Positions 4,840 to 28,687 of a stretch of DNA of 64,000 bases are shown piece after piece; position 1 is the first letter of the stretch; each line of letters opens with the position of its first letter. The stretch comes from Argopecten irradians (taxonomy: Eukaryota; Mollusca; Bivalvia; Pectinida; Pectinidae). A program made the translations under genes and the position numbers. Location of the stretch: contig NC_091134.1 of the NCBI RefSeq assembly GCF_041381155.1, positions 9,456,755 through 9,520,754 of the forward strand. Reading direction: 5' to 3'. The notes under the pieces are model-generated. The model was not told the origin of the DNA and ran no database searches. It saw only the letters and a program-made list of their open reading frames with translations.

Positions 4840-5171
4840 TCACATCTCGAAAGCTTCCATCAACATTGGTGCGATCATTGCTGCCTGTAGTGACATTCTA
4901 CCTCGACTTTGCCTCTGACCTTGTCCTTGTCCATAACCTTGACCTTGTCCATAACCTTGTCCTTGTCCATAACCTTGACCTTGTCCATAACCTTGACCTT
5001 GTCCATAACCTTGACCTTGTCCATAACCTTGACTTTGTCCATAACCCTGACCTTGTCCATAACCTTGTCCTTGTCCATAACCTTGACCTTGTCCATAACC
5101 TTGACCTTGTCCATAACCATGACCTTGTCCATAACCTTGTCCACTTGGTGAGCCGTTGTCTTGTCTAGTAT
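4840..5171 (-). CDS. Gene A exon 4: GYGQGQ repeats and C-terminus
   Basis: The acceptor is GTCATTACAG|AT. The exon reads [12 protein letters not shown], then 12 copies of an 18-bp unit encoding GYGQGQ (one unit GH, one SQ), then [12 protein letters not shown] and the tail to a TGA at 4842-4840. The same DNA is open in other frames because 18 is a multiple of 3, but only this frame has the matching splice phase and sensible flanks. Confidence 0.8.
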
Positions 5172-8100
5172 CTGTAATGACATAATTTGATTTGATTTTT
5201 GAAAAGTATTGATTCTGAATATTACGTATTTACTGGCGCTACACACTGTGGTGTTACGGTTCGCAGATTAGTGGATTAGTTGACAATTCCACGCAGCCTC
5301 ACTTTCACTGAGTTAGGCGAATTTATTTTCGAAAATGTTTTAAATTTATACAAGGTATTCCATTTCAATGGTCAAAACTGGAAAACGTAAGCATAACTTG
5401 ATCGTCGTTTTGCTTTTGGAAGATCAATAAACGCATTTAGACTGGTTTTCTTTGGCCGGCTATTGATTTAAAAAAACACTTTTCTTCTGAAATTAGGTTT
5501 TTACAACTGAACAACCGCTTTTATTTAGATTACAGATTTGTACACATCAACAAAGTGTAGAATATAGGCTGTAGTATAGAAAAGGCAAAAACTGAAATTA
5601 GACTGGGAAGATTGAAACAGGTGACTATATAAGCGCCAAGATGAAACTGTACTTAGGAAAGGCCTAGGTACGTAAGATAAACGGGGTGACCTAGTACTTA
5701 ATGTTCACTCAATCTTGTTTAAGATGCCCCAGGAAAATATGTAAGGTCAGATTCTTTTCATACAATATACTATATACTGTTGCGAATCAACAATTGGTCT
5801 TAAAGATCCGGTATATGTTTCCGAAACAGACATTAATAGTTTATCATCTACAATTATAATGTCAGAACATATATTGATGACCTCAGATGAAGTTATACGA
5901 CACCAAACAAACGTAGGATTTCCTGTATAAATATATGTTAACAATGTAGATTCATCTCATTTTATGCTGCCACCTGGCATAGCGATTTTCAACACTTGCA
6001 TAGATCACTTTGCATATTTATTTCAGGAACCAACGGTGAGCTTTCGAATGAGTTGAAAAGGTATCAAGAAAGTTATCCAGCTAAACTGAAAATGGATAGC
6101 ATCAAAATACGAAAGAAACCAATGATATGGACATTGTCATCAAACTACTCTCCACTGTCATACAAAAGAACAGTCTATGAATTTACATACCCATGAGACC
6201 AGAGTTTCCTCAATACTAAGCGTTAAAATATGTGTTTAGATGATTACCAGCAGCAGAATTAACTTCGGTAAAAATTCGGCCAAATAAAAAAGCAAATAAC
6301 TTCAAATGAGAACAGACTTAAAAAACTTTTTGTCTGTTTAAAGTCGAAATTCGTTAAATACTTTCATCGACATCAACAACTGATCAAATTTCATTGCAAA
6401 TGTATAATGTTATTACCAAGTAAGTGACAAATAGGCTGGGATATGGGCACAAGCTGCATATCATTATAAGACTGATATAAAGCTCCTTCCAAAATATTTT
6501 TTTGCAAAAGCTTTGCACTAATATAAATTGTATATGTATTCCTTTGCAAAAACGAAAGTTGTAAAACAAAAAACCCAGAAATTGGTTTTGATGGTACGAC
6601 ATCCATATGTATGTGACAAATGACACACAATGAACTTTTATTTTTAAGAAGTCGTGACCAAGGTTTCGTGACCAAATTATTTTCATTTACAGATTAATTA
6701 GCCATGATGTTGTCACTTAAAACTATGTCATCCACATAATTGCTTATAATGTGGTAATTAGTACTAACTAATATACTATTCAACTACTAGAAAGGCTGTC
6801 GTTTATAAAGGCATACATTGGAACCACCACCACTCCTCTCACCTTCACGCTTATGCTATTTTGTATGAAGTGTTATATTCCATTGTATGAGGAAATCATT
6901 CTATAGAAATGGCCATGGATATGACAAGTGCTATCTGTTGGTATAGAGTGAAATATTTCTATTAGTCAACTAGCCAAAACTTCTCGAGTTGTGGACAACA
7001 AAATCAAAATTGACGTTTCCAGCTTGCAGTTTTAACTGTGGATTTCTTCAAAATATAAAGGATGCGATATCAGTTGTTTTACAATTATTATAAGCGCGAC
7101 GTCAATGCCATTAACATCAAACGAGCAGTCATTTATATATCAATTTTGATTCAAAATACAATCAAATTATGAAGAAAAAACCCAACATATTATGTGATTA
7201 AATGAGATGTATTATGTGGAAGTATTTTGGATGAACGTTATATACTCTGTATAAAAATCACAGCTTGGTTTTGGCAAACGTTCATATGTACATCATGGTT
7301 ACGTAGCAAATAATGATGACATGACATTTTTTAGTAATGTGTGTTACAAATGTAGATGTCCTTTTCATTAAATTTTCAAACATTTTTTCTTTCTACCACA
7401 AGTGTAAAGAACGCAATAATCTCACGTCATTTTATAAAGCAACGCCACGCATTTCAAAAATGATAACAAAATAAAAGGACATAACAAATAATTAAAACCT
7501 GCTTAAAACAACTCATTGATTAATGCGGTTATACAGTCTGTACCATAACGCTTGCAGTGCTAAACACCATAAATTAGTTTATTTGATGTAACAATTGCAC
7601 CAATCCGATTAAGATAAGGACCTTCATTACACATTTCGATGTTGATGATGACCTATAGAGTGTCACGTCATGTCCAGATCACTATACATTCGTCATTTGT
7701 GCCACATTTTCTCGAATATGGTACCGTATATCCGTCTATTTTCACGGGTAAACATTTTTGTGATTTTGACCTAAGACTAGAAAATCAATTTTGTAAATAT
7801 TTCATGGATCAAAATTCGTGACAAAGGTGATGTCCCACGAAAACACGAAAATACCATCACCTCGAAAATAGCGGCTATACGGTAACAGCAGCATCATCAA
7901 CCAATGTCACTTTCAAACTTAAGCTGGATGGTTGACGCAAAGCTAACCTGACTATGACCTCTTATTCGGCACTGTTACATTTTCATTCAGGTGATAAAAT
8001 GTAGTATAGAGAGTATACCCATTTTCAATCTGGTTGATTTTGAGCCATTACTTACCAGCCATCAACTCCGACATCATACACTTCATGACCCACCAACGCT

Positions 8101-11100
8101 TACAGCATCGCCGTCCTGTCCACATGAACCCACAGGGGAACACCTGTATTTCGTGTTGTTCAAGACAGTCCACTCTTGAACACCGACAGTACAGGGACAT
8201 CTGTGGATCACAGGTTTGAGCCCGGAACCGGTAGTGCATGGCCGCTACTCTGCGTCTGGCCTAGAGTGCATCACATAACGAAAACATAAAGAATAATAAC
8301 TTAGATCTCAATTACACTCTACTCTAAGGCTATAACTTCGAATTTAGATATATGGAACTTGTTGAACCTATGGAATCTATTGGTTTTTTCACTGTATGTT
8401 GTAGGACATGGGTCATTTAAATTAAATTATTAATCCGCTTCTTTTTTAGAAGGATATAATGCAAAATATAGAACTACTTGGAATTGAAATTGTTGAGACA
8501 ATGTCAAGTTCTGCTTTGCTATAGAGATTATATTTGATTAAATAATAATAAAAAAAATTCAAGATGATGTGCACAATGTATGCAGGTAAATTGTTTGCAT
8601 TTGGAGTAATCATACTCTTTGCACAAGGTGTAAATTTGATATAAATGTTTTTGTTTAATACATTATTACGTGTGGTAGATATGTATGTCATTACAGTGCA
8701 ATCTCACTGAACAATATTATTATTATATTGAGGGTTCAGCTCCAAGAAGTTTGAAGATAGGTAGTATTAACGGTTTTAGTGTTAAAACGGAAAGACTTTG
8801 AATTAGAAAAAAAGTAAATATATGATCTTTAAAGAAATATTGCAAAGACTTCACATAGTAGCATATAAAACATTATCATATCAATCTTGAAAGTCTTTAA
8901 ACAGAAATATCGTCATTATTTAGGTTAAAATTACTTTCAATAAATGTTGTACCAGCATAATTTCATATATTTGTATTGAATTTACGCAACACGCTGCAAA
9001 GTCAATCTGAAACGTACCATCATTGTATCATAATAACTTTGTCGTTTTGTCTTCTTGGGCTTTTTTGTTTTCTTCTTTGTTTTAGGAACGTTTGGTTTCG
9101 CTGTAGGTTGGTGTGTTCCTCCGGTATCTTGCCGGCTTGCTGGTCTCTGCGCAGGTCTTTGTAAGAGCTTCCGGTTGGGATTGTAATTGGCACTAAAACT
9201 GTTTGATTGTATCAGTCGAGGTGTCATTGGTTGGCTCTGCCCGGCTTGTTTGTTGTATATTTCGTTTCCGTAGTATGGTGCTGTGAAAAAATAATGATAT
9301 TACTTCTTAAGGAAATTAATCAACGCTCGAAAAGATCGTAAAAACTCATAAATTAGCATAAACCAGAGTGTAAATTCTATCTCGATCGTGCACCTGGCAA
9401 ATACCTCATATGTTCTTACAAATTTAGAAACATTCACAAATGAGTGTTCAGAGAGGTATCCTAAAGAAAGAATGGAAAGAAATAATTCAAAAACCTTCCT
9501 TTTCTGCGCTTTTTGCAATTTAAAAACTCTGTTGAGGATTTCGTGAGTATAATTACAAATTTGATTTAAAAACCTCGGAAATAATGGAATTTATCCTCCT
9601 GTAAATGCTGATCATTGAATATGACGAACCAGATGTATTTAGCTATTGGGTATTGTAAACCTGTGTATTTCTATGATTTAAATTTGCGTTATTTGATGTT
9701 TGCGTGTTGTCTTTATAGCAAAACCTACAAATGGATGGATGTTTCATTATGATATAATGTTTTCTTACGACATTTAATACAACAAGACAATATGATATTT
9801 CTCAATCTAAAGAGCTGTAGTTCAAATATACTGTGTGCATTCCAAAGGCACAAAAATATAACTTAAAGTTAGAGACAAAAATAATTAAAATAAATAATAA
9901 ATATTTCGAGATGTGGAGGATTGCATACTTCCCATATTTCCACACACTTGAACTGTGTTCTCCAAGTTACAAGTTATATTTCAAGTTACAACGAACGCAT
10001 TTTGTTTATGCAGGGAACAACCAGTTAAATGAAAGAAAATACCTTCGATATGGCCCCTGTGTATACAAGTTAAAGCCCAAAGTAGAAATTTGATCCGGTG
10101 TAACGTTGAAAACGGACCTCCGTTGAAAATTGACCTCGGGTCAGTTTTCAACGTTGAAAACAGACCCCGAACGCCGTTGAAAATTGAACATGCCGTTGAA
10201 AATTGACAGTGGCAAACTATCAACGGATGGTCTTTTGAAAAGTTTGTACTAATCTTTTTTATGATTATATTTTCGACGATTTTACGTTTGTCAGGTATTC
10301 AGTAATTGTTAATATATATTTATTCCCTGCACTACAAGAATACATGTATTATATATTTGCGTATGGATCAGTTATGTTGTGTTCTGCGTATGGTTGTGTT
10401 GTGTTGTTGTGTTGTGTTGTGGTTGTGTGTTTGTGTGTAGTTGTTGTGTTGTTATGTTATATGTTGTTGTGTGTTGTGTTATTATATGTGGTTGTGTAAT
10501 GTTATTGTGTTGTGTGTTATTGGGGTGTTGTTGTGTTGTGTGTAGTTGTATGCTGTGTGGCTGTATTTTGTGTTGTGTTGTGTTGTTGTCTGTTGTGTTG
10601 TTGTTCCGTGCTTGTGTAATGTGTTGTTGTGTGATGTTTTAGTGATATGTTGTTGCGTTATGTTGTGTGATGTTGTGTTATTGTGTATTGTTGTGTTGTT
10701 GTTGTTAGGTGGTGTTGTATTGTTGTTGTGTTGTGTAATGTGTTGTTGTGTGATGTTTTGGTGTGTGATTTTGTGTTGTTTTATGTTGTGTTGTGCGATG
10801 TTGTCGTGTGTTGTGTTGTTGTGTGTTATTGTGTTGTTATTGGGTGGTGTTGTATTGTTGTTTCGTGGTTGTGTGTTGTGGTTGTGTTGTGTATTGTGTT
10901 ATGTGTTGTTGTGTGATGTTTTGTTGTTATGTTGTGCTGTGTTGTGAGGCGTGTTATGTTGTTGTGGTGTTGTGTGTTGTTGTTAGGTGGTGTTGTGTTG
11001 TTGTTGCGTGTTTGTGTGATGTGTTCTTGTGTTAGTTGTGTGATTTTTTGTTGTGTGATGTTGTGTTGTGTGACTTTTTGTTGTGTAGTGTTGTTGTGTT

Positions 11101-12631
11101 GTTGTTGGATGTTTTTGTTGCGTGGTTGTGTGTTGTGGTGTGGTTATGTTGTGTGTTGTTGTGTTGTGTGATGTTTTGTTGTGATGTTGTGTCATGTTGT
11201 TGTGTAATGTTGTCTTGTGTTGTGTGTTGTGTGATGTTGTGTTTAGTGTGACGCGTTGTTGTGTTGTGTGACGCGTTGTTGTGTTGTGTGATGTTATGTT
11301 GTGTGATGTTGTGTAATGTGATGTTCTTATGGGGTCACTTTTCAACGGGGTCTATTTTCAACGGGTCGTGTAAAAAGTGCGCTTAATGTTCAGTTTTCAA
11401 CGGTTGTCGGGGTCATTTTTCAACGTTGAAAAATGACTCGATGTCAGTTTTCAACGGGGTCCATTTTCAACGTTACACCGGTATCTGATTGACTGGTTCT
11501 TATGAATTCTTATGAATTTGAAACTTAAAAATGATTTTTTTTCTGCCAGGTAATTATTCCTAAATAACAATGATATGAATTTGGAAATTTAGATTGAAAT
11601 TTAGGTTTAGAATGCAATGTATCAATTTTGATAATGAATATGTAAAAAATTAGAATTTCAAGATTTTTGCACCTTTTTTCAAAATGGATACCCTAGGTGG
11701 AGTTTGAGCTGAAGGACCCAAACTTTGTTTTCTATCTAGTGTTATATGAGAACCTAGACTAAAATGATAGTACACAAGAGGTAACTAATATTCAGCTGTT
11801 TTAATAATACATTACAAAACTTTAACACCGTGGTCTATGTAAATTTATTTAGTTGATTTGTCTCTACACTGTAGTAATTTATCTGATGTTAAACTAGGAA
11901 CGTCCATGCCATCTGTGATTCGGAGGTATATCCCCTAGTATATCTAAAGATTCATTGGTGTGGCTGTCTTTCGACAGCAAGAGTTATGAAGAACAGCATA
12001 GCTCGCTTATTGTAAACTTGTTAATGAAATAGCTAATAAATCAAAACTAGGTCCGGCCGAAACATTTATAAATGATGGTGTGACATCATAAAAGAAAAAA
12101 AAACACCTAGAGAGGTTATATAAAAGAAACAAGTTAATGATGGCAATACAATGTCACACAATTAATAATAGAGATGTTTTATAACTTATTAATGTACCGT
12201 ATACATTTACAGGATACGTCATAAAATACCGCCAGGGACATGGTTCCGAAACGTTTGAACCGTTTTTTTATTCATTGTACATTCATATTAACATAGAGGT
12301 TTAGATGTAATGCATAAATCCTTGTATAAATGTCATTTATAATATTTTTTAAACAGATAATTGTCATGAATTTTGTCGCTTTGTATTTCGGATATGTTAT
12401 TGTCTATCAAATCAGGTGTTGTTGTTAATCTTCTGAAGGAACGCATATTTTAACGTCTTGAATTGTTGTCAGTAGTGGAGGCGGGTTAAAATTAATTTTA
12501 TCATCCATCATATGATGCTGCAAAGGTTGTTACATTTTGTATCTAAAGAGATTGTAAGATACAGTTTCAATTGATATTTTGATATTAAGTATCCCGTCGT
12601 TGAAAAAAATCGTGGGGTTTTAGTCGAATTT

Positions 12632-12667
<36 letters not shown>

Positions 12668-15404
12668 ATATTAACAAATTTTCTTCCATTGGGTTCGACC
12701 TTAAACAACATCATGCTATATTCACTCTTGTTGAATGTTTCAAACAAACTTGAATAATAACATACTTTGGACTATCAACATGGACTACTTTTGTAATGTG
12801 TAGCCGGTTATTTTCATGTGTCAAAATGTTTACGAGTTGGACTAGACACGAGAAAATTTAATTTTAACGTTTTTTAAAATCTCGCGGTTTGACTATAAGG
12901 TTTTTTCTCGCACCTCGGACAGGGAAATCTCACTTGATACCCGGTGCTAGATTTTTCTATCTCGTCCGATCTGTCTGGTACCTTTACGCGAATTTTGGCG
13001 GAATTTTACGCCATTCATGTAACAGTCCGCGCATGTGACGTCAAACTCTCAAACCGGTGACGTCACAAGCGTCAGATAATCAATATTATTAGAAATATAT
13101 GCATTCAGTCATTTACCATGCATTGTTTGGTTGTTGTTTTTAATCATGAAAACAGTATGTACCGATTGATCATCGTTTTCTCTTTTATATAACCGAACTA
13201 TAGTTTTATGCGGAATGACTGAAATCGAAGCGCAGATGAAATGGTTAATCGGCTTTGAACCAGGAGGCCCAAGACGGGATAGTTTTACACTCTGAACGCG
13301 TATATAGATGGGTTTTGTTATATCTTAGAGGCGCGAGAAAAAAAATCTATTACCTTTAAGTGATCGAGATCGGGTTATCTCAGTCTCGGGCTAAGATTTT
13401 GTAACATCCCAACCTCGGCTAACGCCTCGGTTGGGATTATGTTACAAAATCTTAGCCCTCGACTGAGATAACCCGATCTCGATCACTTACAGGTAACAGA
13501 TTTTATTAATATCTCTCATCGGTTTCTTTTTTTTGAGGATCACATCTTCACGACCATAGCAATATCCCACAGTGTGGAGTTGCTCATAATTCATCTTTGT
13601 ACGACCTTTGACTTTCGACTTTGCTATCCCGAAATTAAAATGAAAGTAGTGATTATCAAATGGTGCATATGTATTACACTTAATGCATGCATGTAATTGT
13701 AAATTAAAAAAAGAACAAATAAATAAAAGAATGAATCGCCAGAACAGGGAAGTATTATAATCATATTGCTTTCATTTATACCTGATTTTTCTAATAACTA
13801 CCATATTGGACGATGAACAACTACCCATTCCTTAACATTTCCCGCATAGAAGAATGCGTGATAATTCAACAATATAGTGCTGTGGAAAGTAACGATTGTC
13901 GGTTGTAGTGTGAGTCATAAAGTTATGCCGTTGTCTTTGTTTAGACTAATTTACATATTTTCATCATGAGTAGAAGTTTGTCCTACATTGTGTATGCCAA
14001 ATCTCGATATGTTTCTGTCCTTACTAGTGTTCGTTTAAGATATACAAACCTGATTCAAGAATTAGCACTGAAAGTTAGTAATAACCAGTGTTGTAAGTGG
14101 ATGAAAAAGGAGTTAGATTTCGGGGCCAAATATTTTTGATCAAAATCAACTGAATCTTCGAAACATCTTTTTGTTCTAACAATTGTAATTTGATATACTT
14201 TTTGAGTTGTTTGTTTTCATTCTTGTTTACTTTTAAAAACAATACCTTGGAGGGAAATTGAGGTTTATGATAATTATGATGTCTCGGTTGAGGTCAATGA
14301 TACGTTGTAATAGTAGGTAAATTACAATATTTAATATAATATTTTAACTATAATTTTTCTACGTAATTCTCACAAAAAGCATAAAACATGTTATTACGAA
14401 CGACCTTGTAAGTTCTTATGAGGAATAAGTTTATATGTTTAAAGGGTAATTAGAGATTTAAATTTAGATAGAGTGAATAGGCTCTTTTAGCGTTATTTTG
14501 ACATAAAATGCTGATGTTATTTCAATTCAATCCGACTTAGTTTAATGTTTGTCCTGAAATATCATAATTAATTTTCAAATAATTAAACAAATCACACAAA
14601 ATAACTAAGGTTAGACGATTCAGCAAACTGTTTTAGAACTATTTCATTCCCCAAATAACCTTTTCAATAAAGCTTAATGTGTTTTCGTGTAACTGACAAG
14701 GTTGAGGTTATCTGTTGGAGAGCTAAAAATAACGTAAAAAGGAACAAATGTTTTAAAGTTCACATTAATATCTTTAGATGGGTTTTTTTTTTCTCTGACA
14801 TTTTATGGTACACCACAAAAAGTACCATTAAATGTTCTCATAATGAGATGAATATATCCCTATTATACCTAGAGCAATTAAAGTACAATTAAATACAAAA
14901 CAGTTTCGTTAATATCATCAATCAAATAATTCACGATGTAAGGAAATTCAGTGTAATTGTTTAATTAATAAATATCAGAATTATGGTCATTTTTGTATCT
15001 TATATCAATACATAGTAGATAACTGTTAAAGGAGTTAAAGCTTGACAAATATTACAGCAGCAAACGACACTTTATCAAAATCACTGTGGGTGACATCCGT
15101 AATGAAACTGCAACTGAAAACAACTAAATAAACAATTTGTTGTTAAAACATTACCTACTAAGTTTTTATTAACTGCAGGATATTAAAGACAACGAAAGTG
15201 CTATTAAAGATGAAAACTGCTTAACCAGAGAAATGTTTTTAACCATTACCGACATTAATGGATTTGGCGGTGATAATAATATTTCTTACGTATTAAATTA
15301 AATGTCCTACCTTGGGCTGGCGCGTTGGGGAATATCTGAAAACCTGTCGTGAATGCCAGGCCTACCCAAGTTAGGGAGAAGAGTTGTAATTCCTTTACCA
15401 ACAT
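4840..15404 (-). CDS. Gene A: secreted GYGQ-repeat protein with a Cys-rich module (277 aa, 4 exons)
   Basis: Exons in order are 15404-15311, 9280-9018, 8200-8056 and 5171-4840. They total 834 nt with matching phases (1, 0, 1) and GT-AG borders. Residues 1-31 begin with a signal peptide (MLVKELQ, then hydrophobic [15 protein letters not shown]). Residues 32-119 are Pro/Gln/Lys-rich and end in a basic stretch with KTKR, a possible proprotein cleavage site. Residues 124-160 hold seven cysteines: C-x-C-x4-C-x10-C-x8-CC-x7-C. From about residue 178 there are 12 repeats of six residues (GYGQGQ), then a short tail [18 protein letters not shown]. No membrane segment follows the signal. I do not recognise the family. 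Composition suggests an extracellular matrix protein of shell, periostracum or byssus type (inference). The Cys spacing resembles that of gene B 9 kb away on the same strand. No AATAAA lies close after the stop; the first on this strand is about 950 nt downstream. Confidence 0.8.
4923..5142 (-). repeat. 18-bp coding tandem repeat (12 units) in gene A
   Basis: Twelve units of GGTTATGGACAAGGTCAA with few changes, encoding GYGQGQ. Third-position and single amino-acid variants show it is translated in this frame; copy number is likely to vary between alleles. Confidence 0.85.
5172..8055 (-). other. Gene A intron 3
   Basis: 2.9 kb of AT-rich DNA with GT-AG ends. Apart from a small inverted-repeat element at 7722-7884 nothing is recognised. 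Confidence 0.6.
7722..7884. mobile_element. Small MITE with TACCGTATA termini
   Basis: The left end TACCGTATATCCGTCTATTT and the inverted right end TTACCGTATAGCCGCTATTT match imperfectly; total length about 163 bp. Inside are TTTTCACG/TTCGTGA motifs typical of short palindromic elements. It lies in gene A intron 3. Confidence 0.5.
8056..8200 (-). CDS. Gene A exon 3: seven-cysteine module
   Basis: The acceptor is TGATCCACAG|ATG and the donor is ATGGCTG|GTAAGT. The exon encodes [12 protein letters not shown] and onward to [12 protein letters not shown], and so contains the whole Cys module (residues 124-160). It ends in phase 1; the leftover G plus AT of exon 4 makes Asp168. Confidence 0.78.
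8201..9017 (-). other. Gene A intron 2
   Basis: 0.8 kb, GT-AG, AT-rich, no other feature seen. Confidence 0.6.
9018..9280 (-). CDS. Gene A exon 2: Pro/Gln/Lys-rich linker
   Basis: The acceptor is TTATTTTTTCACAG|CA and the donor is ATGATG|GTACGT. The frame reads [16 protein letters not shown], then Pro/Arg/Gln-rich sequence, then a Lys/Thr run ([15 protein letters not shown]) and SYYDTMM. The exon ends in phase 0, which matches exon 3. Confidence 0.75.
10095..11481. mobile_element. Inverted-repeat element carrying a TGTTG satellite
   Basis: It begins CCGGTGTAACGTTGAAAA and ends with the exact reverse complement (18 bp). Diverged inverted similarity continues for about 100 bp at each end, with many CGTTGAAAA motifs in both orientations. 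Between the arms lies about 0.95 kb of TGTTG/TGTGTTGT repeat. No transposase is seen. It is probably a non-autonomous foldback-type DNA element; the target duplication is unclear. Confidence 0.6.
10376..11325 (+). repeat. Degenerate TGTTG/TGTGTTGT satellite
   Basis: Almost only G and T on the plus strand, with units of TGTTGTGTTG-type and occasional ATG or CGTGG interruptions. Long open frames here result from the simple sequence and are not genes. Confidence 0.85.
12634..12665 (+). repeat. Poly(A) run, 32 bases
   Basis: Uninterrupted A run. It could be the tail of an old retroposed copy, but no body is recognised upstream. Confidence 0.7.
13343..13504. mobile_element. Palindromic MITE (hairpin) in gene A intron 1
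   Basis: Two arms of about 75 bp starting near AATCTATTACCT and reading through GTGATCGAGATCGGGTTATC are inverted around a short loop (CCTCGGCTAACGCCTCGG). Related GAGAAAA/CTCGC-rich sequence extends left to about 12845, so the full element may be about 660 bp. Confidence 0.65.
15311..15404 (-). CDS. Gene A exon 1: signal peptide
   Basis: ATG at 15404-15402 follows CCAAG. The open frame encodes MLVKELQ, a hydrophobic core and FPNAPAQ, and ends CAAG|GTAGGA in phase 1. The single G joins CA at the start of exon 2 to make an Ala codon. No convincing TATA box is visible just upstream, so a further 5' UTR exon is possible. Confidence 0.75.
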
Positions 15405-16401
15405 CTTGGAATACACAGTTATTTTGGCACGTTTCTATGACGGCCGTAATTTTCTAGCTGGGGCTCTGTGTACCTGAGTCAGGTGTGTGAAGTGACTGGC
15501 TGATAATGACACAGACAGTGTATTGGTCTTCACTGGTATACACTACTAAGGCTTGCCGACAGGATTAATGTCGGATTGTGTCTTTCTTGTCACCTTCACT
15601 CTAAATACGTATACATTCATGTGTATTTTCTATAAAATACATAGACAGAAACTTTATTTTTGTAACATAAAAATATTCATTACAAAGCCCATCGATGAAA
15701 CAAATAATGATTACCTTTCGGAAATTATTTAAAAAGACGATTGTATTCACGCATAAATTTGAATGGCCTTTCTGCAACTGTTTCAATGTAAATGTATTGT
15801 ATATATTTGTATTATCGAATAAGGGAAAGTAAGACTCTTGGTGCTGTCCGCTGTCAAACACTCACTATAGTCTATAAATGTGGTGGCTTAACATGCATAG
15901 CGGTGTATACTGCAGCCTCCCAAAATGTTTACAGGGGAGGAATTTAATATAGCGTGCTGTTAATAGGACTTTAAGGCTATCAACCAAACAATCCACAATT
16001 CATAGACATATAACGAAGGACTGTTTAATTGTCATACAATGTCACCAACGAACACTTTCTATTATTGCAATATTTATGGATACACGAATTAGATTAGCTA
16101 TAATAATATTTAAGTGTACGAAGGGGATATAACAGCATGGACCGACGCAAAGGTCCTGGGTTTATATATGAAGTTTATTAGACAGATGTCTAAAGGAATA
16201 TCTTATCGATTTGATTGACATCACATCTATAATCCGTATCAAATATATGGTTCTAATAGCATTGTACCTGACGTGAATTGTTATTGCAAGACAAAATAAT
16301 GGCAATAGAAGAACACCCTGAAGAACTCAACATTTGTGCAATAATGTTCGCAAGTGCAGTATCGAAATAAACATTTTGACAGTATTACTTGATATATAAT
16401 A

Positions 16402-16896
16402 TAAGACTCTTTCATATGTGGATATGAAGGATAGGGATTTTCTACCCGAGGGTCATAAAATGTTGAAAAAGGCTTGCCGAGGGTTTTACAACATTTTGTG
16501 ATCCAACGGGTAGAATATCCCTATCCTTCATATCCACATATAAAAGAGTATTTTTCTCTCATACCTCGAAATTTTATTTCAATTTTACTACTATGATTTT
16601 CCGCCATTTTGAATTAAATTCGAAGAAAACGCGACTGCAAATCAATTCGCCATCCCGTTTTTTAATGCGCGACTGCAAATCAATTCGCCATCCCGTTTTT
16701 TTATCTTTGAATCTTAATCAAGCTAAGTTTCTGAAAGAAATGCTGAAATTGCACCTAGATAACATTACTTTTGTTGACGCTGTGACATCATGAGGCTTTA
16801 TTGCATGGGTAGCCATGCAATACAACCCCAGGCGACACCAGTGTATTGCCCTGGACCAGCCAGTATTTCACGTGTAGATATGAGAGAAAAAATATT
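16402..16896 (+). mobile_element. Foldback element family P, copy 1
   Basis: The left 145 bp (16405-16549) is a near-perfect hairpin reading CATATGTGGATATGAAGG and back, with GAGGGT and CGGGTAG motifs. About 340 bp follow, ending CACGTGTAGATATGAGAG, which resembles the left end inverted. A 38-bp segment (GCGACTGCAAATCAATTCGC...) is duplicated at 16631-16704. Other copies are at 29683, 30838 and 59709. Confidence 0.65.
16631..16704 (+). repeat. 38-bp tandem duplication inside element P copy 1
   Basis: GCGACTGCAAATCAATTCGC plus 18 bp repeated twice, nearly identical. Confidence 0.8.
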
Positions 16897-18077
16897 ATCC
16901 CAAGTAAAAATTATGAACGGATGAATTGTCAAAAGTTACCCAGCATGCCTCTTAATAGCAACAGCGCATTAGACCTGTGGAGGTGTGAATAAAGCACTTT
17001 AGAGGAATCCTAAGTAAAAATTACTTAACATCTGCCTTAAATGTGATACACTATTGTTAGTAATTAAGTGACGGCTCCTGTCGGAGAGGCTGTAATACAT
17101 TAGAAAAATGTGGAAATGTGCATAAACGACATTATAACAAATGATCATTATGACAAAATTTGTATGAGGCCTCATAATTTTGTTAATTAATATGACAACA
17201 GATACTTCTTTAATTTCTGAAACTTTAATGACACTTCCTGATTTATTTCACGGCTATCTTTAAGGTGCTATAATCATCATTCTACCTAAAATATGGAATG
17301 AATATGAATATATTATTTTTATGACAGATAATCTTTTGTTTTTCCTTTATAAACAAATCTACTGTGTTTTAATCTAGAAACTATCTGTTTGAAAATGTAT
17401 ATTATTTAACGTTCCTATATAAATTGCGAAAAATAGCTAAGTATGCCGATTGACCGAATTGATTAAATGTAAATTAAAATACAGATTGCAATAATCAGTA
17501 CGATACAAAAATGCCTGCACTGTAGCAATCTACTTTCACGGAGACCATCTACTGTAGAAGCGTTTTTATAAAATAGTTTTGTATCAAAAATTGAGTAAAG
17601 CTGCCGCGATGTTTATAGGGTGTATAGCTCTAAAGCCGAGGATACAAAATGAATAGAAATACATTTATTTGTGAATAAGACAAGTGTCGAACTCGTGTGC
17701 TTGCAGAATGGTTGCAAATATGATATGATATCGAATATAAAACTTCCCCATGATATTCATCCCCTAGGACAGTTTTTTATATTGATATATTTGGCATTTA
17801 TTATTTATAGTGACTTAATTATGAAAAACTCTAATTCATGACTCATGTTTTCTCTTAGGTCATGATCTATCACGGTTTCAACTCAAAGCTCTGTGTATCT
17901 TCATCAAATGGCCAAGGTTACCGACGCATTTCCAATTAGCTTCTACCTCTATAATACGAGTTTGAATCCTATCAGGGACAGTTACGAGTGTGGTTTTAAG
18001 TTTAGTTTGGTTTTTATCCTGCTTTCATCTACCTTCAAATGGCACTGTTTTGTAAGACGCTGGGTTGTAATAAGACA

Positions 18078-18150
18078 AAAAAAAAAAAAAACCCAAAAAA
18101 CCCCCCCAAAAAAACAACAAAAAAACAAAAACAAAAACAAACAAACAACC
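18078..18150 (+). repeat. A/C-rich simple sequence
   Basis: Runs of A with C interruptions turning into AAACAAAC units. Confidence 0.75.
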
Positions 18151-18864
18151 AAACAAACAGAAAACCACTCATATCAGTGAAACAAATGATACAATACAAC
18201 AGTGGACAATTGATTTTAGTTAATTTGAGTCCGAGATTCAACAGATTGGTATTAAAACTATCTTGAAAAAAACACGTTAGCTTTTGTCGTATGTAGTTTA
18301 ATTAAACTAAAATACGACCATAAAGAGTATTACTTTGGGAAAGCAATGATAACGTTTTGCAAAATAAACATTTATCTCGACTGTCAGGCATGCACGTTTA
18401 GACGTGCTATGCGGTACCTGATAAAGTGTACTAGGTGCACAGGTGACTGTGTTACAATTCGGCGTTTCCTGGTCATAATGTACCTCTATATTTAGACGTA
18501 GAGTGATGTCACAGTGGCTTATTCTGAGTCCAGGTCACAACAGGCCAGACAGAACATGCTGCCCAAAGCTATCGTGACAAAAGCAGCCAGTCTCCAGCAA
18601 GACCAACACAGCTCACGATAACACACGTAGTATACCACTTATATGATAACGAAACCATCTATCAATGCAGCTTGAAATGCATTTGACGAAAACATTATAT
18701 AAGTGCTAAAATCATTCACAGAAAGATTCATGGGGAATATTATGCGCCTAAGTCATCCGCAAGAGCCAATTCTACATGTTTTTTACCAACAAAGAATAAA
18801 AATTCAAAGCCCAAATGGATTGACATTTCAAATACATGTAGCAGTATCCTACACAATCAAACCA

Positions 18865-21800
18865 GTGTACACATTTCAACAACCCAGTATTGTACACAAC
18901 AGTACACCAGTTCAACAAACCAGTATTGTACACAACAGTACACAGTTCAACAACCCATTATTGTACAAACAGTACATAGTTCAACAACCCATTATTGTAC
19001 ACAACAGTACACAGTTCAACAACCCATATTGTACACAACAGTACACAGTTCAACAACCCATTATTGTACACAACAGTACACAGTTCAACAACCCAGTATT
19101 GTACACAACAGTCACAGTTCAACAACCCTTATTGTACACAACAGTACACAGTTCAACAACCAGTATTGTACACAACAGTCACAGTTCAACAACCCATTAT
19201 GTTACACAACAACCCAGTATTGTACACAACAGTACACAGTTCAACAACCCAGTATTGTACACAACAGTACACAGTTCAACAACCCATTATTGTACACAAC
19301 AGTACACAGTTCAACAACCCAGTATTGTACACAACAGTGCACAGTTCAACAACCCAGTATTGTACACAACAGTGCACAGTTCAACAACCCATTATTGTAC
19401 ACACAACAGTACACAGTTCAACAACCCAGTATTGTACACAACAGTACACAGTTCAACAACCCAGTATTGTACACAACAGTACACAGTTCAACAACCAGTA
19501 TTGTACACAACAGTACACAGTTCAACAACCCATATTGTACACAACAGTACACAGTTCAACAACCCATTATTGTACACAACAGTACACAGTTCAACAACCC
19601 ATTATTGTACACAACAGTACACAGTTCAACAACCCAGTATTGTACACAACAGTACACAGTTCAACAACCCATTATTGTACACAACAGTACACAGTTCAAC
19701 AACCCAGTATTGTACACAACAGTACACAGTTCAACAACCCAGTATTGTACACAACAGTACACAGTTCAACAACCCAGTATTGTACACAACAGTACACAGT
19801 TCAACAACCCAGTATTGTACACAACAGTACACATTTCAACAACCCATTATTGTACACAACAGTACACAGTTCAACAACCCATTATTGTACACAACAGTAC
19901 ACAGTTCAACAACCCATTATTGTACACAACAGTACACAGTTCAACAACCCAGTATTGTACACAACAGTACACAGTTCAACAACCCAGTATTGTACACAAC
20001 AGTACACAGTTCAACAACCATGTATTGTACACAACAGTACACAGTTCAACAACCCAGTATTGTACACAACAGTACACAGTTCAACAACCCAGTATTGTAC
20101 ACAACAGTACACAGTTCAACAACCCAGTATTGTACACAACAGTACACAGTTCAACAACCCAGTATTTCACAACAGTCACATTCAACAACCATATTGTACA
20201 CAACAGTACACAGTTCAACAACCCAGTATTGTACACAACAGTACACAGTTCAACAACCCAGTATTGTACACAACAGTACACAGTTCAACAACCCAGTATT
20301 GTACACAACAGTACACAGTTCAACAACCCAGTATTGTACACAACAGTACACAGTTCAACAACCCAGTATTGTACACAACAGTACACAGTTCAACAACCCA
20401 GTATTGTACACAACAGTACACAGTTCAACAACCCAGTATTGTACACAACAGTACACAGTTCAACAACCCAGTATTGTACACAACAGTACACAGTTCAACA
20501 ACCAGTATTGTACACAACAGTACACAGTTCAACACGTATTGTACACAACAGTACACAGTTCAACAACCCATTATTGTACACAACAGTACACAGTTCAACA
20601 ACCCAGTATTGTACACCAAAACAGTACACAGTTCAACACCCATTATTGTACACAACAGTACACAGTTCAACAACCCAGTATTGTACACAACAGTGCACAG
20701 TTCAACAACCCAGTATTGTACACAACAGTGCACAGTTCAACAACCCAGTATTGTACACAACAGTACACAGTTCAACAACCCAGTATTGTACACAACAGTA
20801 CACAGTTCAACAACCCAGTATTGTACACAACAGTACACAGTTCAACAACCCATTATTGTACACAACAGTACACAGTTCAACAACCCAGTATTGTACACAA
20901 CAGTACACAGTTCAACAACCCAGTATTGTACACAACAGTACACAGTTCAACAACCCATTATTGTACACAACAGTACACAGTTCAACAACCCAGTATTGTA
21001 CACAACAGTACACATTTCAACAACCCATTATTGTACACAACAGTACACAGTTCAACAACCCAGTATTGTACACAACAGTACACAGTTCAACAACCCAGTA
21101 TTGTACACAACAGTACACAGTTCAACAAACCAGTATTGTACACAACAGTACACAGTTCAACAACCCATTATTGTACACAACAGTACACAGTTCAACAACC
21201 CATATTGTACACAACAGTACACAGTTCAACAACCCAGTATTGTACACAACAGTACACAGTTCAACAACCCAGTATTGTACACAACAGTACACAGTTCAAC
21301 AACCCAGTATTGTACACAACAGTACACAGTTCAACAACCATGTATTGTACACAACAGTACACAGTTCAACTAACATGTATTGTACACAACAGTACACAGT
21401 TCAACAACCATGTATTGTACACAACAGTACACAGTTCAACAACCCAGTATTGTACACAACAGTACACAGTTCAACAACCCATTATTGTACACAACAGTAC
21501 ACAGTTCAACAACCCAGTATTGTACACAACAGTACACAGTTCAACAACCCAGTATTGTACACAACAGTACACAGTTCAACAACCCAGTATTGTACACAAC
21601 AGTACACAGTTCAACAACCCAGTATTGTACACAACAGTACACAGTTCAACAACCATATTGTACACAACAGTACACAGTTCAACAACCCAGTATTGTACAC
21701 AACAGTACACAGTTCAACAACCCATTTATTGTACACAACAGTTACACAGTTCAACAACCAGTATTGTACACAACAGTACACAGTTCAACAACCCAGTATT

Positions 21801-22600
21801 GTACACAACAGTACACAGTTCAACAACCCATTATTGTACACAACAGTACACAGTTCAACAACCATTATTGTACACAACAGTACACAGTTCAACAACCCAG
21901 TATTGTACACAACAGTGCACATTTCAACAACCCAGTATTGTACACAACAGTACACAGTTCAACAACCCATTATTGTACACAACAGTACACAGTTCAACAA
22001 CCCAGTATTGTACACAACAGTGCACAGTTCAACAACCCAGTATTGTACACAACAGTACACAGTTCAACAACCCAGTATTGTACACAACAGTACACAGTTC
22101 AACAACCCAGTATTGTACACAACAGTACACAGTTCAACAACCCAGTATTGTACACAACAGTACACAGTTCAACAACCCATTATTGTACACAACAGTACAC
22201 AGTTCAACAACCCATTATTGTACACAACAGTACACATTTCAACAACCCATTATTGTACACAACAGTACACAGTTCAACAACCCATTATTGTACACAACAG
22301 TACACAGTTCAACAACTCATTATTGTACACAACAGTACACAGTTCAACAACTCATTATTGTACACAACAGTACACATTTCAACAACTCATTATTGTACAC
22401 AACAGTACACAGTTCAACAACTCATTATTGTACACAACAGTACACAGTTACACAACAGTACACATTTCAACAACCTATTATTGTACACAACAGTGCACAG
22501 TTCAACAACCCAGTGTTGTACACAACAGTACACAGTTCAACAAACCATTATTGTACACAACAGTGCACAGTTCAACAACCCATTAATGTACACAGTCAGC
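18865..22600 (+). repeat. 35-bp minisatellite, about 106 copies
   Basis: The unit contains TTGTACACAACAGTACACAG followed by TTCAACAACCCAGTA (35 bp). Two main variants read CCCAGT and CCCATT; rarer ones have GTGCAC or ACATTTC. A sub-variant with AACTCATT is clustered at 22310-22430. A few units have small indels. The unit has no stop codon in any plus frame and 35 is not a multiple of 3, so all three frames stay open for kilobases; this is not a gene. Confidence 0.95.
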
Positions 22601-24305
22601 ACACACCGATAACCTCCTTGTCAGGTAGTTGAAGCGCATACGATAATTTCGTTTTTGCGCTATCTTTTATTCTCTTGTTGTTATCTATATCTAGCTATAT
22701 TGAAATTATGATACATGTTGTAATAGATTAATTGATTAAAAAGAATTATCGTGATGATTTTTTTTTGAAAATGGCATTTTCATTCATAACATAATTTTTT
22801 GTATGACGTAATGTAAATATATTCTTGAATCTCTAAAATGCTCCATGCCAAGACAAAGACAAATCGGCAAGTGACAAGTAGATGTCAACGGATAGTATTT
22901 ACTGAGCAAAGCATATCTTAAACCATTATAATTAGACTTTTAATCCAAAAGAGGAAAGAAGTATGGTTAGCTTTATATGACAGAAGAAATAAAATATATA
23001 CCGCATTGATAGCTATTAACTGATTTTTGATCTAATATCATATAGGCAAATCTTATATTTTTAGATATATCTGCATAGATCAGCATTCTTTTTTAAATTG
23101 GAATTTTTTTTTCTCAGATATGATATTTGATATAAAATTAGCAAAGTGGACAAAGCTTTAATAGATCCAACAAGGCATTACACATAAGTTATATGCTTGT
23201 TTTAAAGTTATAAAACAAATTAAATTTAATATTTTTTTTAAATGTACTGCAAAGTGCAAAGGAAATGCTTTTTGTTGTCTTTATTGTATATTACATAAAT
23301 TGACACATGCATATCAGGAATAAGTTTTTTTATAATGTCCTTCTTTATTTCTTTAGTTTTAATTAAGCTTTAAATTGAATACCATAAATACTATTGGCTG
23401 TGTGTGCTCTATATAGTGTATAATGCATTGATAAATCACGTTAGACTCACAACACTTTACGTTTTAGAGGATACAAAATGTTATAAAGTAATACATTTAT
23501 TTACAAAGATTACATTTGTAATATCTGACCAGCTTTGTTAGTGAATGTGGTTTTGAAAGTTTTTAAGTACTTGATGTGCATGTCATAATAATGTATAAGA
23601 TTGATCCAAATGCGGTTTCAAGATGTAGTCTTTGTACTTTTCTGAAACAGGCTTTAGCTAAAAGATTGAATGATAGTGTGTTCAGAGGAGATATTTTGTT
23701 TAAGACACATGATATATGGAAATCGAACATAATTGTGCAATGCAAATATCAATGCATGTCACATCACAATCGGTTTACCATGTACAGAGTTTAGCTTATT
23801 CATCTCATTTTCAAAGAAACTCTAATAAGGATTTTGAACTGGAGGAAATTGTAAATGTTTGTTTCCGTCCGTTTGTCTGTCTGTCTGTCAAATTGTGGTT
23901 TTCAGACGATAACTTGAGAGCGGATTGCTGGATTTTGGTCACACTTCATCAAATGGTAGATTCGGAAGTAACTTAGCTTAGTGATGAAGGTCACCAGGGT
24001 CACCAGGGAACATAGATTGTTTCAGTTTTACTCAGATTGTTTTGTCTAAATGTGGAATAGAATACATTATGGTATCAAAGCACATGTAAGTGATAAAAGC
24101 AATTTTAAAGTGATGAAAATAATCATATAACTAAAGATTCAAAGTTTGGCATGCATTCCGACCAATGAATAACGAACAGTACCGAGTCTAAATGTTTGTT
24201 TTAAATGAAATAGCTTTATTTTGATTTTTGTAGATTAAATAATAAGATTTAATCCATTGACATATCATGTCCGCCATCACATCGTAGTTTCCACAACATG
24301 CATCT
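22601..24305. other. Stretch between minisatellite and gene B, no gene seen
   Basis: AT-rich. At 23862-23990 lies a (CTGT)n run followed by GCGGATTGCTGGATTTTGG and CTTCATCAAATGG, which looks like part of a dispersed repeat. The end of gene B's transcript falls near 24200. Confidence 0.35.
24215..24220 (-). promoter_or_regulatory. Polyadenylation signal of gene B
   Basis: AATAAA on the minus strand (TTTATT on plus) sits 86 nt after the gene B stop codon, with no other copy nearer. Confidence 0.65.
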
Positions 24306-25222
24306 CTAAAATTCAAAACCAACACATATGTAATGCACTTTCTCCGGACAGCACATGGTAGGTAAAAAAGAATGTTCCTTATATTCATCACAGTTGCCAT
24401 AACTAACGTGTCCCTGTGGGCACATGAAATTACATTTGCAGAATCTAAGCCAGAAAGGCGACGCACATTTTCTAGTTACTGGTGGTTTAAGTCCCTGGCT
24501 TAATTGACCGAACAGGCCGCTCATCCCTCCAGCGCCCATTCTAGGTGCCATTTCACCTCCAAACATATTAGTCATTCCAGTCGCTGTACCCATTCCGGCT
24601 CCATTCATCCTCTCGAAAGGAAATCCTATTCCATCCATGGCATTTCCTGGTCCGCCCATTCCACTTCCAATCAGGCCTTCCATTCCACCCATAGCATTTC
24701 CTGTTCCACCAAATCCACTTCCCATATGACCTTCTATTCCGCTCATTGCATTTCCCGTTCCGCCCATTCCACTTCCCATCAGGCCTTCCATTCCACCCAT
24801 AGCATTTCCTGTTCCGCTCATTCCACTTCCCATCACGCCTTCCATTCTACCCATGGAAATTCCTGTCCCGCCCATTCCACTTCCCATCGCGCCTTCCATT
24901 CTACCCATGGACTTTCCTGTTCCGCCCATTCCACTTCCAACCGGGCCCTGCATTCTGCCCATAATATTTCCTGTTCCACCCGTTCCACTCCTCATGAGAC
25001 CTTCCATCTGACCCATAGTTCCACCATTTCCTCCACTTCTGACTCCTAAGTTAACTTCCGTTCCAGCCACTGCACCTCCAGTTGGCCCCATTCCATCTCC
25101 AAACATTTCGTTCATTCCACCAGCTCCATGCGTTCTTCCACCCATCGTACCACCCGTCAAACCTTCCATGGCGTCCATGGCCATCATGGAGCCAATATTT
25201 ACACCTCCAAACATTTCATTAC
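24306..25222 (-). CDS. Gene B exon 2: mature protein
   Basis: The acceptor is TTATACTGACAG|GT. The frame is open for 305 codons to a TAG at 24308-24306. The exon carries all the Gly/Met repeats and the C-terminal Cys module starting KCASPFWLRFCKC. Confidence 0.87.
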
Positions 25223-25860
25223 CTGTCAGTATAAAAAGTTATCTTATAATAATTACTGTTATCGTTGGACACGTGAAATGGTAAACAACAAAAATAAATA
25301 TAACAATTTTAATTTTAAAAAGACTGTTAGATAATACTTATGTATGTCATGAAAAAGCTATGCAACATGCAATATCAGAGGTGGAAAACAATAAGCCAAT
25401 CATTTTCAGAGATAAAATATTTGAACATGAACTATTCAGTTTTGCTCAGTAAATAAATAAACAAATGAAATATATATACAATAGATTCAGTAGTGTTTTA
25501 GCTTTTCTTCATCTTTTCTAAATGACGTCTTTCATTTTGTATTTCTGCGAGTTCACGGACGGTATTTCTGCGGAATTAATTTCCGCTGTGAATTACAATA
25601 GCAAGAGCCGACACATTAAAAACTGTGCACAAAATCATTTGATGTTCAAACACCTCGTTGAGAATGTGTCATCAAAATTACTACGAAGTCCTCCATGATC
25701 CTTTTTTTTTATTTTGCTCTAACCAAATTCAGCAAAAATACCACATTGTTTGCTTTAGCCAAATGGTAGTTTCGTATGCATACATACCAAATATAAATGC
25801 GATAGTTGTGTGGAGAAGAGTTAATTCTACGAGAAGGAATCCAAATCCAAGGTGCCTCAT
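24306..25860 (-). CDS. Gene B: secreted Gly/Met-rich repeat protein with C-terminal Cys module (329 aa, 2 exons)
   Basis: Exons are 25860-25788 and 25222-24306, 990 nt in total, joined in phase 1 (G|GT gives Gly25). Residues 1-25 are a signal peptide (MRHLGFGFLLVELTLLHTTIAF). The mature chain is rich in Gly and Met. About seven tandem units of 18 residues (pattern MGGMEGLMGSGMGGTGNA, 54 bp) fill the middle, with less regular Gly/Met sequence on either side. The last 53 residues are a separate module with eight cysteines: C277-x8-C-x-C-x3-C-x9-C-x12-CC-x7-C324. The composition resembles methionine-rich nacre proteins of pearl oysters, but I cannot claim homology without a search. The Cys module shares spacing with gene A. 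A canonical AATAAA lies about 90 nt after the stop, so the transcript end is well placed. Confidence 0.85.
24640..25030 (-). repeat. 54-bp coding tandem repeat in gene B
   Basis: About seven units encode 18 residues each (MGxMEGLMGSGMGGTGNx). Units differ at several codons, so the array is older than the gene A repeat. Confidence 0.85.
25223..25787 (-). other. Gene B intron
   Basis: 565 bp, GT-AG, phase 1, AT-rich; no other feature. Confidence 0.7.
25788..25860 (-). CDS. Gene B exon 1: signal peptide
   Basis: ATG at 25860-25858 follows CATCAGG. The 24 complete codons encode a typical signal peptide ending AFIF. The donor is TTTG|GTATGT, phase 1, matching exon 2. Confidence 0.8.
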
Positions 25861-28144: not shown

Positions 28145-28687
28145 TCACAGTCTAGATTCCTCTGTCTTTACAGTTTCCGTATTTTTGTTCTGCTGCAGTC
28201 CATTTTTCAAAATACCTTTAACATTTCCTACACTAGTGTTAATTTTTGCTTGATCAGGTTTTGTATCATCTTTTGGTTTTTTGTTGAGCTGCAGTGTGTC
28301 GTCAATCACTTTAATGTCATGTGTGAATTCCGATTTTTCCTTCTTCACCTCGTCACCATAATTGAAAACCGTATTCTGATACCAATTAGGTTCAAGAGAT
28401 TCAATCCGTGGCATCCCCGCCTCATCAGCATCTTTTAGATTGGTCATGGATGGGTGACTTCCAAGTTTAAACGGATGTTTACCTTGTTTTATACGCCGCT
28501 TCGCTCGAATGACCAACGGAATGAACAACGCCATGAAAACAATTAATAGCACAAGAACCCCAGCAAAAATGGCTGCGCCCTTTGAATACTCTTCCTCTGT
28601 CTTGTCTTCCACACGTTTGTCTCGGTGAACAGCCAAAGGGAGAGGGTTGGAAAGTATTCGATGGTCATTTTCTCTGACTAAAATAAT
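28145..28687 (-). CDS. Gene C exon 6: juxtamembrane, TM helix and cytoplasmic tail
   Basis: The acceptor is TTTTTTCAG|ATT. It encodes IILVRENDHR, HRDKRVED, the helix GAAIFAGVLVLLIVFMALFI and the tail ending KTEESRL, stop at 28147-28145. The tail is rich in Lys, Asp and Asn and has no recognisable motif. Confidence 0.87.
   Translation of the reverse strand: MILVRENDHRILSNPLPLAVHRDKRVEDKTEEEYSKGAAIFAGVLVLLIVFMALFIPLVIRAKRRIKQGKHPFKLGSHPSMTNLKDADEAGMPRIESLEPNWYQNTVFNYGDEVKKEKSEFTHDIKVIDDTLQLNKKPKDDTKPDQAKINTSVGNVKGILKNGLQQNKNTETVKTEESRL

What the first reader, a model, noticed from the sequence alone, without database searches (positions are those of the whole stretch)
4840..25860. Two neighbouring secreted low-complexity proteins share one cysteine module
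Gene A has C-x-C-x4-C-x10-C-x8-CC-x7-C (residues 124-160). Gene B has C-x8-C-x-C-x3-C-x9-C-x12-CC-x7-C (277-324). The CxC start, the order of single cysteines, the CC pair and the exact x7 to the last Cys agree, although the other residues do not. In A the module precedes GYGQGQ repeats; in B it follows Gly/Met repeats. Both have phase-1 signal-peptide exons and lie on the same strand about 9 kb apart. This looks like an undescribed secreted module coupled to different structural repeats, perhaps for shell, periostracum or byssus. The part from the third Cys to CC also loosely recalls beta/big-defensin spacing, but the loop lengths do not fit well.
Basis: partly seen in the sequence, partly recalled or inferred. 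Interest (0 to 1): 0.75.

Follow-up and report, generated by a model that had tools for sequence, protein, structure and literature searches.

The report
Two scallop structural proteins, shared cysteine framework
Two neighbouring scallop genes appear to encode secreted, repeat-rich structural proteins that carry the same spacing of eight cysteines but no other detectable sequence similarity, probably a small disulfide-linked knot used in shell, ligament or another secreted material.

Summary
All eight cysteines of each protein fit one framework, C-x7/8-C-x-C-x3/4-C-x9/10-C-x8/12-CC-x7-C. In 264 kb only these two places fit its strict form, and the agreement of spacings is unlikely by chance (about 0.0004 to 0.003). 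The genome is taken to be bay scallop, Argopecten irradians, or a close relative. Against common descent: residues between the cysteines are no more alike than shuffled ones. No Pfam or PDB match and no second copy were found, and neither structure prediction is usable. I read the pair as secreted structural-matrix proteins: a disulfide module joined to Tyr/Gln/Gly repeats in A and Gly/Met repeats in B. B resembles, in composition only, abductin and Met-rich insoluble shell and ligament proteins; A resembles KRMPs in layout. The defensin idea is not supported. Expression, secretion and the joining of A's last exon are unproven. Secreted repeat proteins with Cys modules are a known kind; this framework was not found described, so I call it a new variant.

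The parts
15311..15404 (-). Gene A exon 1, signal-peptide-like, ends in phase 1
   Evidence: donor GTAGG; hydrophobic N-terminus judged by eye
9018..9280 (-). Gene A exon 2, linker and Lys-rich stretch
   Evidence: one match in the own genome
9042..9053 (-). KTKR (residues 108-111), furin-like motif at the end of the Lys-rich stretch of A
   Evidence: residue number, place computed from the model; cleavage is inferred
8056..8260 (-). Gene A exon 3, carries the cysteine module; donor GTAAGT; if unspliced the frame ends after two more codons (GK stop)
   Evidence: one full match in the own genome
8078..8212 (-). Cysteine module of A, residues 136-180: C-x7-C-x-C-x4-C-x10-C-x8-CC-x7-C
4840..5171 (-). 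Gene A exon 4, GYGQGQ repeats and C-terminus
   Evidence: joining to exon 3 is phase-compatible but unproven
4918..5139 (-). 18-bp tandem array coding GYGQGQ, 12.3 copies, 94% matches
25788..25860 (-). Gene B exon 1, signal-peptide-like, ends in phase 1
   Evidence: judged by eye
24306..25222 (-). Gene B exon 2, Gly/Met repeats followed by the cysteine module and stop
   Evidence: one full-length match in the own genome
24628..25018 (-). 54-bp tandem array coding an 18-residue Gly/Met repeat, 7.2 copies, 81% matches
24324..24467 (-). Cysteine module of B, residues 277-324: C-x8-C-x-C-x3-C-x9-C-x12-CC-x7-C
24215..24220 (-). AATAAA poly(A) signal about 90 bases past the stop of B (an ATTAAA lies about 55 past it)

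Best explanation
A and B are secreted structural-matrix proteins of the bay scallop. Each joins one compact eight-cysteine module to a repetitive low-complexity chain: a Lys-rich stretch plus GYGQGQ repeats in A, Gly/Met repeats in B. The module most likely derives from one ancestral module, duplicated locally and then diverged so far that only the cysteine frame is left. Proposed mechanism: after secretion the chains give extensibility, hydrogen bonding and, through Tyr and Met, oxidative cross-linking. The module folds with disulfides and serves as the fixed node beside the chain, either by binding a partner or by disulfide exchange between chains, so that a mixed network sets outside the cell (shell matrix, hinge ligament, periostracum or byssus). 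Shown: the gene anatomy readable from sequence, the shared framework, its rarity in 264 kb, the composition, and strong signs of the species. Inferred: secretion, common descent, fold, disulfides, tissue, network role.
For: Shared 8-Cys framework with no further Cys in either protein. Agreement of gap sizes by chance: 14 of 5040 permutations, 83 of 200,000 random placements, 62 of 109,945 placements that already hold one CC and one CxC. Strict form at 2 places in 264 kb, both these genes. Same strand, 8.9 kb apart, phase-1 first intron in both. B is 27.7% Gly and 13.1% Met; A is 15.8% Gly, 14.8% Gln, 6.7% Tyr. Met-rich regions are found in most insoluble proteins that Kintsu et al. identified from nacre, prism and ligament of a pearl oyster with mercaptoethanol and trypsin (PMC7591529, abstract and passages). 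A secreted MGG-repeat protein, gene 000194, was detected in mantle only, and its knockdown came with disordered prismatic and nacreous layers, though the authors caution that their knockdowns may not be specific (PMC3893171, passages). In KRMP-3 the Gly/Tyr region binds chitin and the Lys-rich region acts on crystals (PMC4498902, abstract and passages). In recombinant scallop byssus proteins disulfides influence assembly and strength (PMC9117251 passages; PMC13348336 abstract).
Against: Residues between the cysteines score -16 against -18.0 (sd 13.0) for shuffled loops, 8,727 of 20,000 shuffles as good or better. The signal regions are only weakly alike (220 of 5000 shuffles as good). MAFFT did not line up all eight cysteines. 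DNA comparison of the genes and upstream regions gave matches of at most 28 bases, the best in a poly-T run. No expression, proteomic or structural evidence. A phase-1 intron after the signal peptide is common in secreted proteins (recalled). B is not demonstrably related to abductin: 91 of 1000 composition shuffles align as well.
Confidence: 0.5

Rival explanations
1. The two frameworks agree by coincidence or convergence. A and B are unrelated secreted proteins with small disulfide domains; CC and CxC pairs are frequent in such domains.
For: No similarity outside the cysteines; neither module finds the other or a second full copy in the genome; the fifth loop differs by four residues (8 against 12).
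Against: Gap agreement is rare even when one CC and one CxC are required (62 of 109,945); the nearest other eight-Cys stretch among 34 in 264 kb lies 15 from A and 18 from B, against 7 between A and B; the pair are near neighbours on one strand.
Confidence: 0.27
2. The modules are defence peptides: A in particular is a cationic defensin-like peptide released from a precursor at KTKR, and the repeats are tails.
For: The A module has 7 Lys+Arg against 4 Asp+Glu with a cluster RRCCKRWW; a dibasic site precedes it, as in big-defensin precursors (PMC7203481 passages); B has Arg-Lys directly before its first Cys; the order C-x3/4-C-x9/10-C loosely recalls beta-defensins (spacing recalled).
Against: Eight cysteines and a Cys after the CC pair, whereas trans-defensins have six; no Pfam match; the genome's big-defensin exon ends CC-V-T with no further Cys and lies on C8; the B module is balanced in charge, 4 Lys+Arg and 4 Asp+Glu; long structural repeats are not a defensin feature (recalled).
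Confidence: 0.1
3. The gene model of A is wrong: exon 3 ends the gene (ELMAGK stop), and the GYGQGQ exon belongs to another transcript, so A is a shorter Cys protein without repeats.
For: An in-frame stop lies two codons behind the exon 3 donor; an AATAAA lies about 467 bases beyond, whereas after exon 4 the first ATTAAA is about 869 and the first AATAAA about 947 bases away; intron 3 is 2.9 kb.
Against: The donor is a full GTAAGT consensus, the acceptor TTACAG is in the matching phase, and the joined frame stays open. A simple scan for hydrophobic N-termini between exons 3 and 4 found one, 20 residues long before its stop.
Confidence: 0.13

Closest known systems
KRMP (lysine-rich matrix proteins) of pearl oysters
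   Same: Signal peptide, basic Lys-rich part, then a Gly/Tyr-rich part (PMC4498902); A has this order with a Cys module between.
   Different: KRMP-3 is 101 residues; A is 297 with a GYGQGQ array. No KRMP sequence was compared here. B lacks a Lys-rich part.
Met-rich insoluble shell and ligament proteins (NU-5, LMP; MRNP34 known to me by title) and gene 000194 of Pinctada fucata
   Same: Met-rich; 000194 has a signal peptide, MGG repeats and mantle-only detection.
   Different: In 000194 the Met/Gly repeats are near the C-terminus; in B they precede the Cys module. No shared Cys module is described in the passages I saw; sequences not compared.
Abductin, the scallop hinge-ligament rubber protein
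   Same: Gly/Met repeats in one exon behind what looks like a phase-1 acceptor; two abductin-like exons found on C9 of this genome.
   Different: Abductin repeat is GGFGGMGGGX (recalled), B's is an 18-residue unit. One C9 exon ends with a single Cys, neither has the module. Similarity to B is explained by composition.
Scallop byssal proteins Sbp5-2 and Sbp9
   Same: Secreted scallop repeat proteins in which disulfides influence assembly and mechanics.
   Different: Their repeats themselves carry the cysteines or are EGF-like; here one separate module adjoins a Cys-free repeat chain.
Big defensin / beta-defensin (trans-defensins)
   Same: Secreted Cys-rich domain with a CC pair; dibasic site KTKR in A.
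   Different: Eight cysteines, extra Cys after CC, CxC start, no Pfam match.

Membership tests
Big defensin / trans-defensin | Six cysteines (paired 1-5, 2-4, 3-6 in beta- and big defensins) | tested here: not met
   Eight cysteines in both modules; pairing untestable
Big defensin / trans-defensin | Match to a Pfam defensin model | tested here: not met
   0 Pfam families at E up to 10 for both modules
Big defensin / trans-defensin | Prodomain ending in a dibasic site, Lys-Arg or Arg-Arg | tested here: inconclusive
   KTKR 24 residues before the first module Cys in A; in B only Arg-Lys directly before the first Cys
KRMP | Signal peptide, Lys-rich basic region, Gly/Tyr-rich region in this order | tested here: met
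   A only, with a Cys module inserted and Gln added to the repeats; B does not meet it
KRMP | Sequence homology to KRMPs | not tested
   No KRMP sequence was available in the collections used
KRMP | Chitin binding by the repeat region | not testable with these tools
   Needs protein
Abductin | GGFGGMGGGX decapeptide repeat (recalled) | tested here: not met
   B repeat is 18 residues; 91 of 1000 shuffles of B align to the C9 abductin-like exon as well
Met-rich insoluble shell/ligament scaffold proteins | Met-rich region | tested here: met
   B is 13.1% Met
Met-rich insoluble shell/ligament scaffold proteins | Present in the acid- and detergent-insoluble shell fraction | not testable with these tools
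   Needs proteomics
Shared A/B module family | Same cysteine framework | tested here: met
Shared A/B module family | Residue similarity beyond the cysteines | tested here: not met
   8,727 of 20,000 shuffles score as well
Shared A/B module family | Same fold and disulfide pairing | tested here: inconclusive
   AlphaFold2 without alignment: mean pLDDT 40.8 and 42.7

The most novel reading that the evidence does not exclude
An undescribed eight-cysteine disulfide module, present as a local pair in the bay scallop, has been moved between positions and joined to two chemically different elastic or silk-like repeats. It acts as an exchangeable cross-linking node, so that two partner chains, one Tyr/Gln-rich and one Met-rich, co-assemble in one material such as hinge ligament or shell matrix.
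Probability: 0.25. Interest if true: 0.55.

Novelty: new variant of a known kind. Interest (0 to 1): 0.38.

Why it matters
Mollusc shell and byssus proteins diverge so fast that families are hard to trace; a cysteine frame that outlives the other sequence would give a handle for following them. If the module is a cross-linking node it would also be a simple part for protein materials, in the animal that also makes the Met-rich rubber abductin. If it is coincidence, the pair is still an ordinary addition to the many lineage-specific secreted repeat proteins of molluscs.

Tried and rejected
Sequence searches with each module against the own genome, Pfam, PDB and viral contigs gave no relative; two weak own-genome hits (E 3.58 and 0.25) cover part of a module and were not pursued. 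The collections hold no other mollusc genomes that I could search, so orthologues could not be sought. A short Cys pattern over the own genome matched 5450 and 5283 times against 4390 and 3860 for its reversed control, too common to use. AlphaFold2 on single sequences gave mean pLDDT 40.8 and 42.7, so no fold search was run. The B repeats hit a C12 stretch (E 0.006-0.03) that is a tandem array coding a different repeat, and a C2 stretch (E 0.10) whose fetched DNA showed no Gly-rich frame of at least 70 residues. Big defensin was considered and rejected; the family search also rang, below its cut-off, in 1 of 14 control genomes. WAP, trefoil, hevein, three-finger, SVWC and anemone-toxin frameworks were compared from memory only. 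Ten paper searches were made. Searches (six terms on shell matrix, Cys-, Gly- and Met-rich, signal peptide, mantle; GYGQ, mantle, shell) found 0 papers. Of the listed papers I saw passages or abstracts of nine; passages of PMC5700196 and PMC4064982 added nothing. So 'undescribed' means: not matched in Pfam or PDB and not met in those searches.
Full report
What was checked. The window lies at C1:9456755-9520754 of an 845.8-Mb genome. Two exons of a muscle-type myosin heavy chain are identical over 177 of 177 residues to the chains of PDB entries 1dfk, 1dfl, 1b7t and 1kk7, which I recall to be bay scallop, Argopecten irradians; 2ec6 and 2os8 score lower. The genome also holds two exons with the decapeptide repeat that I remember for abductin (read). 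I therefore take the animal to be A. irradians or a very close relative.

Gene models. From splice signals and open frames, gene A has four exons on the minus strand: a signal-like exon (15404-15311), a linker with a Lys-rich end [19 protein letters not shown] (9280-9018), the cysteine exon (8260-8056) and the GYGQGQ exon (5171-4840). Gene B has two: a signal-like exon (25860-25788) and one exon with 7.2 copies of an 18-residue Gly/Met repeat followed by the cysteine module (25222-24306); an AATAAA lies about 90 bases past its stop. The first intron is phase 1 in both. Signal peptides were judged by eye; no predictor was run. Neither gene has transcript support here. In A the step from exon 3 to exon 4 rests on a GTAAGT donor and a phase-compatible acceptor only. 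An in-frame stop follows two codons behind the donor, and of the two poly(A) signal types sought none lies within about 868 bases of the exon 4 stop.

The shared framework. The cysteines are at 136, 144, 146, 151, 162, 171, 172, 180 in A and at 277, 286, 288, 292, 302, 315, 316, 324 in B, eight in each protein. The gap series are 7-1-4-10-8-0-7 and 8-1-3-9-12-0-7, a summed difference of 7. That close a match is met by 14 of 5040 permutations of the gaps, by 83 of 200,000 random placements, and by 62 of 109,945 placements that already contain exactly one CC and one CxC. In 264 kb (window plus 100 kb each side) the strict pattern matches these two places only. The loose 8-Cys pattern gives 39 rows, 37 of them at three TG-rich simple-repeat places and the other two A and B (no filter; one search listed 26 rows after dropping those over 40% Cys). 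A second-order Markov sequence of 10.56 Mb, trained on the window without five repeat arrays, gave 0 matches to the loose 8-Cys form and 1 to a 7-Cys form. Of 322 eight-Cys stretches in the 264 kb, 34 had at least 12 residue types; the nearest of the others lies 15 from A and 18 from B.

What speaks against common descent. With the cysteines anchored, the other residues score -16 against a shuffled mean of -18.0 (sd 13.0), and 8,727 of 20,000 shuffles do as well. The signal regions score 27, reached by 220 of 5000 shuffles, weak at best. DNA comparison of the two genes and their upstream regions found matches of at most 28 bases, the best in a poly-T run. MAFFT did not align all eight cysteines. 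So the case for a shared module rests on the frame, the neighbourhood and the gene layout. I put a shared origin at somewhat better than even.

What is known of the module. No Pfam family at E up to 10, no PDB chain at E up to 10, and only its own place in the genome as a full match for each module (two weak partial hits at E 3.58 and 0.25 aside; the tool scores only its best candidates). AlphaFold2 without an alignment gave mean pLDDT 40.8 and 42.7 with a few short strands in each; I draw nothing from that. Trans-defensins have six cysteines (PMC7203481, passages), and the genome's one exon over the Pfam cut-off (25.1 against 25 bits with its neighbours in frame), on C8, ends in CC-V-T without the extra Cys. 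A has KTKR before the module and B has Arg-Lys directly before its first Cys, so processing cannot be excluded.

What the proteins may do. B is 27.7% Gly and 13.1% Met; A is 15.8% Gly, 14.8% Gln and 6.7% Tyr. In pearl oyster, most proteins identified by mercaptoethanol and trypsin from the insoluble matrix of nacre, prism and ligament have a Met-rich region, and the authors propose scaffold formation and cross-linking (PMC7591529, abstract and passages). A secreted MGG-repeat protein, gene 000194, was detected in mantle only, and its knockdown came with disordered prisms and nacre, with the authors' caution on specificity (PMC3893171, passages). In KRMP-3 the Lys-rich part affects crystals and the Gly/Tyr part binds chitin (PMC4498902, abstract and passages). 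Repetitive low-complexity domains combined with other domains are a recognised feature of mollusc mantle secretomes (PMC4897951, passages). In recombinant scallop byssus proteins, disulfides contribute to strength and recovery (PMC9117251, passages) and to assembly (PMC13348336, abstract). From these I infer a repeat chain with one disulfide module as its node. The tissue could be shell matrix, hinge ligament, periostracum or byssus; B's composition leans towards ligament or shell. B is not shown to be an abductin: its similarity to the C9 abductin-like exon is reached by 91 of 1000 composition shuffles.

Surroundings. Seven open frames from the flanks were given to Pfam, out of those of at least 130 residues listed. 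They include a KY-like protein, a protein kinase, a polysaccharide deacetylase (chitin-deacetylase-like), a GLTP protein and an alkaline phosphatase. No third match to the framework outside simple repeats lies within the 264 kb. The deacetylase is a possible matrix gene, but one neighbour proves nothing.

Verdict. The reading as secreted structural proteins with an undescribed module is reasonable but unproven in its key steps. The kind, a secreted repeat protein with a Cys module, is known; the framework is new to the libraries searched.

Noticed in passing
C9:40866308-40866451 (L049) and C9:40835546-40835698 (L051), minus strand: Two abductin-like exons about 31 kb apart with GGFGGMGGG repeats, so the ligament rubber protein appears to be a local pair in this scallop; the L049 copy has a single Cys near its stop.
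   Followed up: partly
window 10100-11480; similar TG-rich stretches near -64.5 kb and -57.9 kb of the window: A TGTTG-rich minisatellite of about 0.9 kb flanked by repeated GTTGAAAA-type sequence, inside intron 1 of gene A; similar TG-rich stretches occur twice more upstream. It may be a repeat-bearing mobile element.
   Followed up: no
window 18867-22594: A 35-bp tandem array of about 100 copies between the two genes; its long open frames (up to 1309 aa) read the same repeat in several frames and are no sign of a gene.
   Followed up: no
window 40921-44315: A 28-bp tandem array of about 121 copies, 95% matches.
   Followed up: no
L019 6327-7490 (about 33 kb upstream of the window): Polysaccharide deacetylase with a signal-like start and an N-terminal Cys-rich stretch, chitin-deacetylase-like.
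   Followed up: partly
window 37974-38735, minus strand: 254-residue open frame that looks (from memory) like the end of a non-LTR retrotransposon polyprotein; Pfam gave only a sub-threshold unrelated match.
   Followed up: no
window 28148-28738, minus strand: Last-exon-like frame with one strong hydrophobic segment and a charged tail, just upstream of gene B; no Pfam match over its cut-off.
   Followed up: partly
C8:8118522-8118602 (L045): Big-defensin exon, just over the Pfam Defensin_big cut-off with its neighbours in frame.
   Followed up: partly
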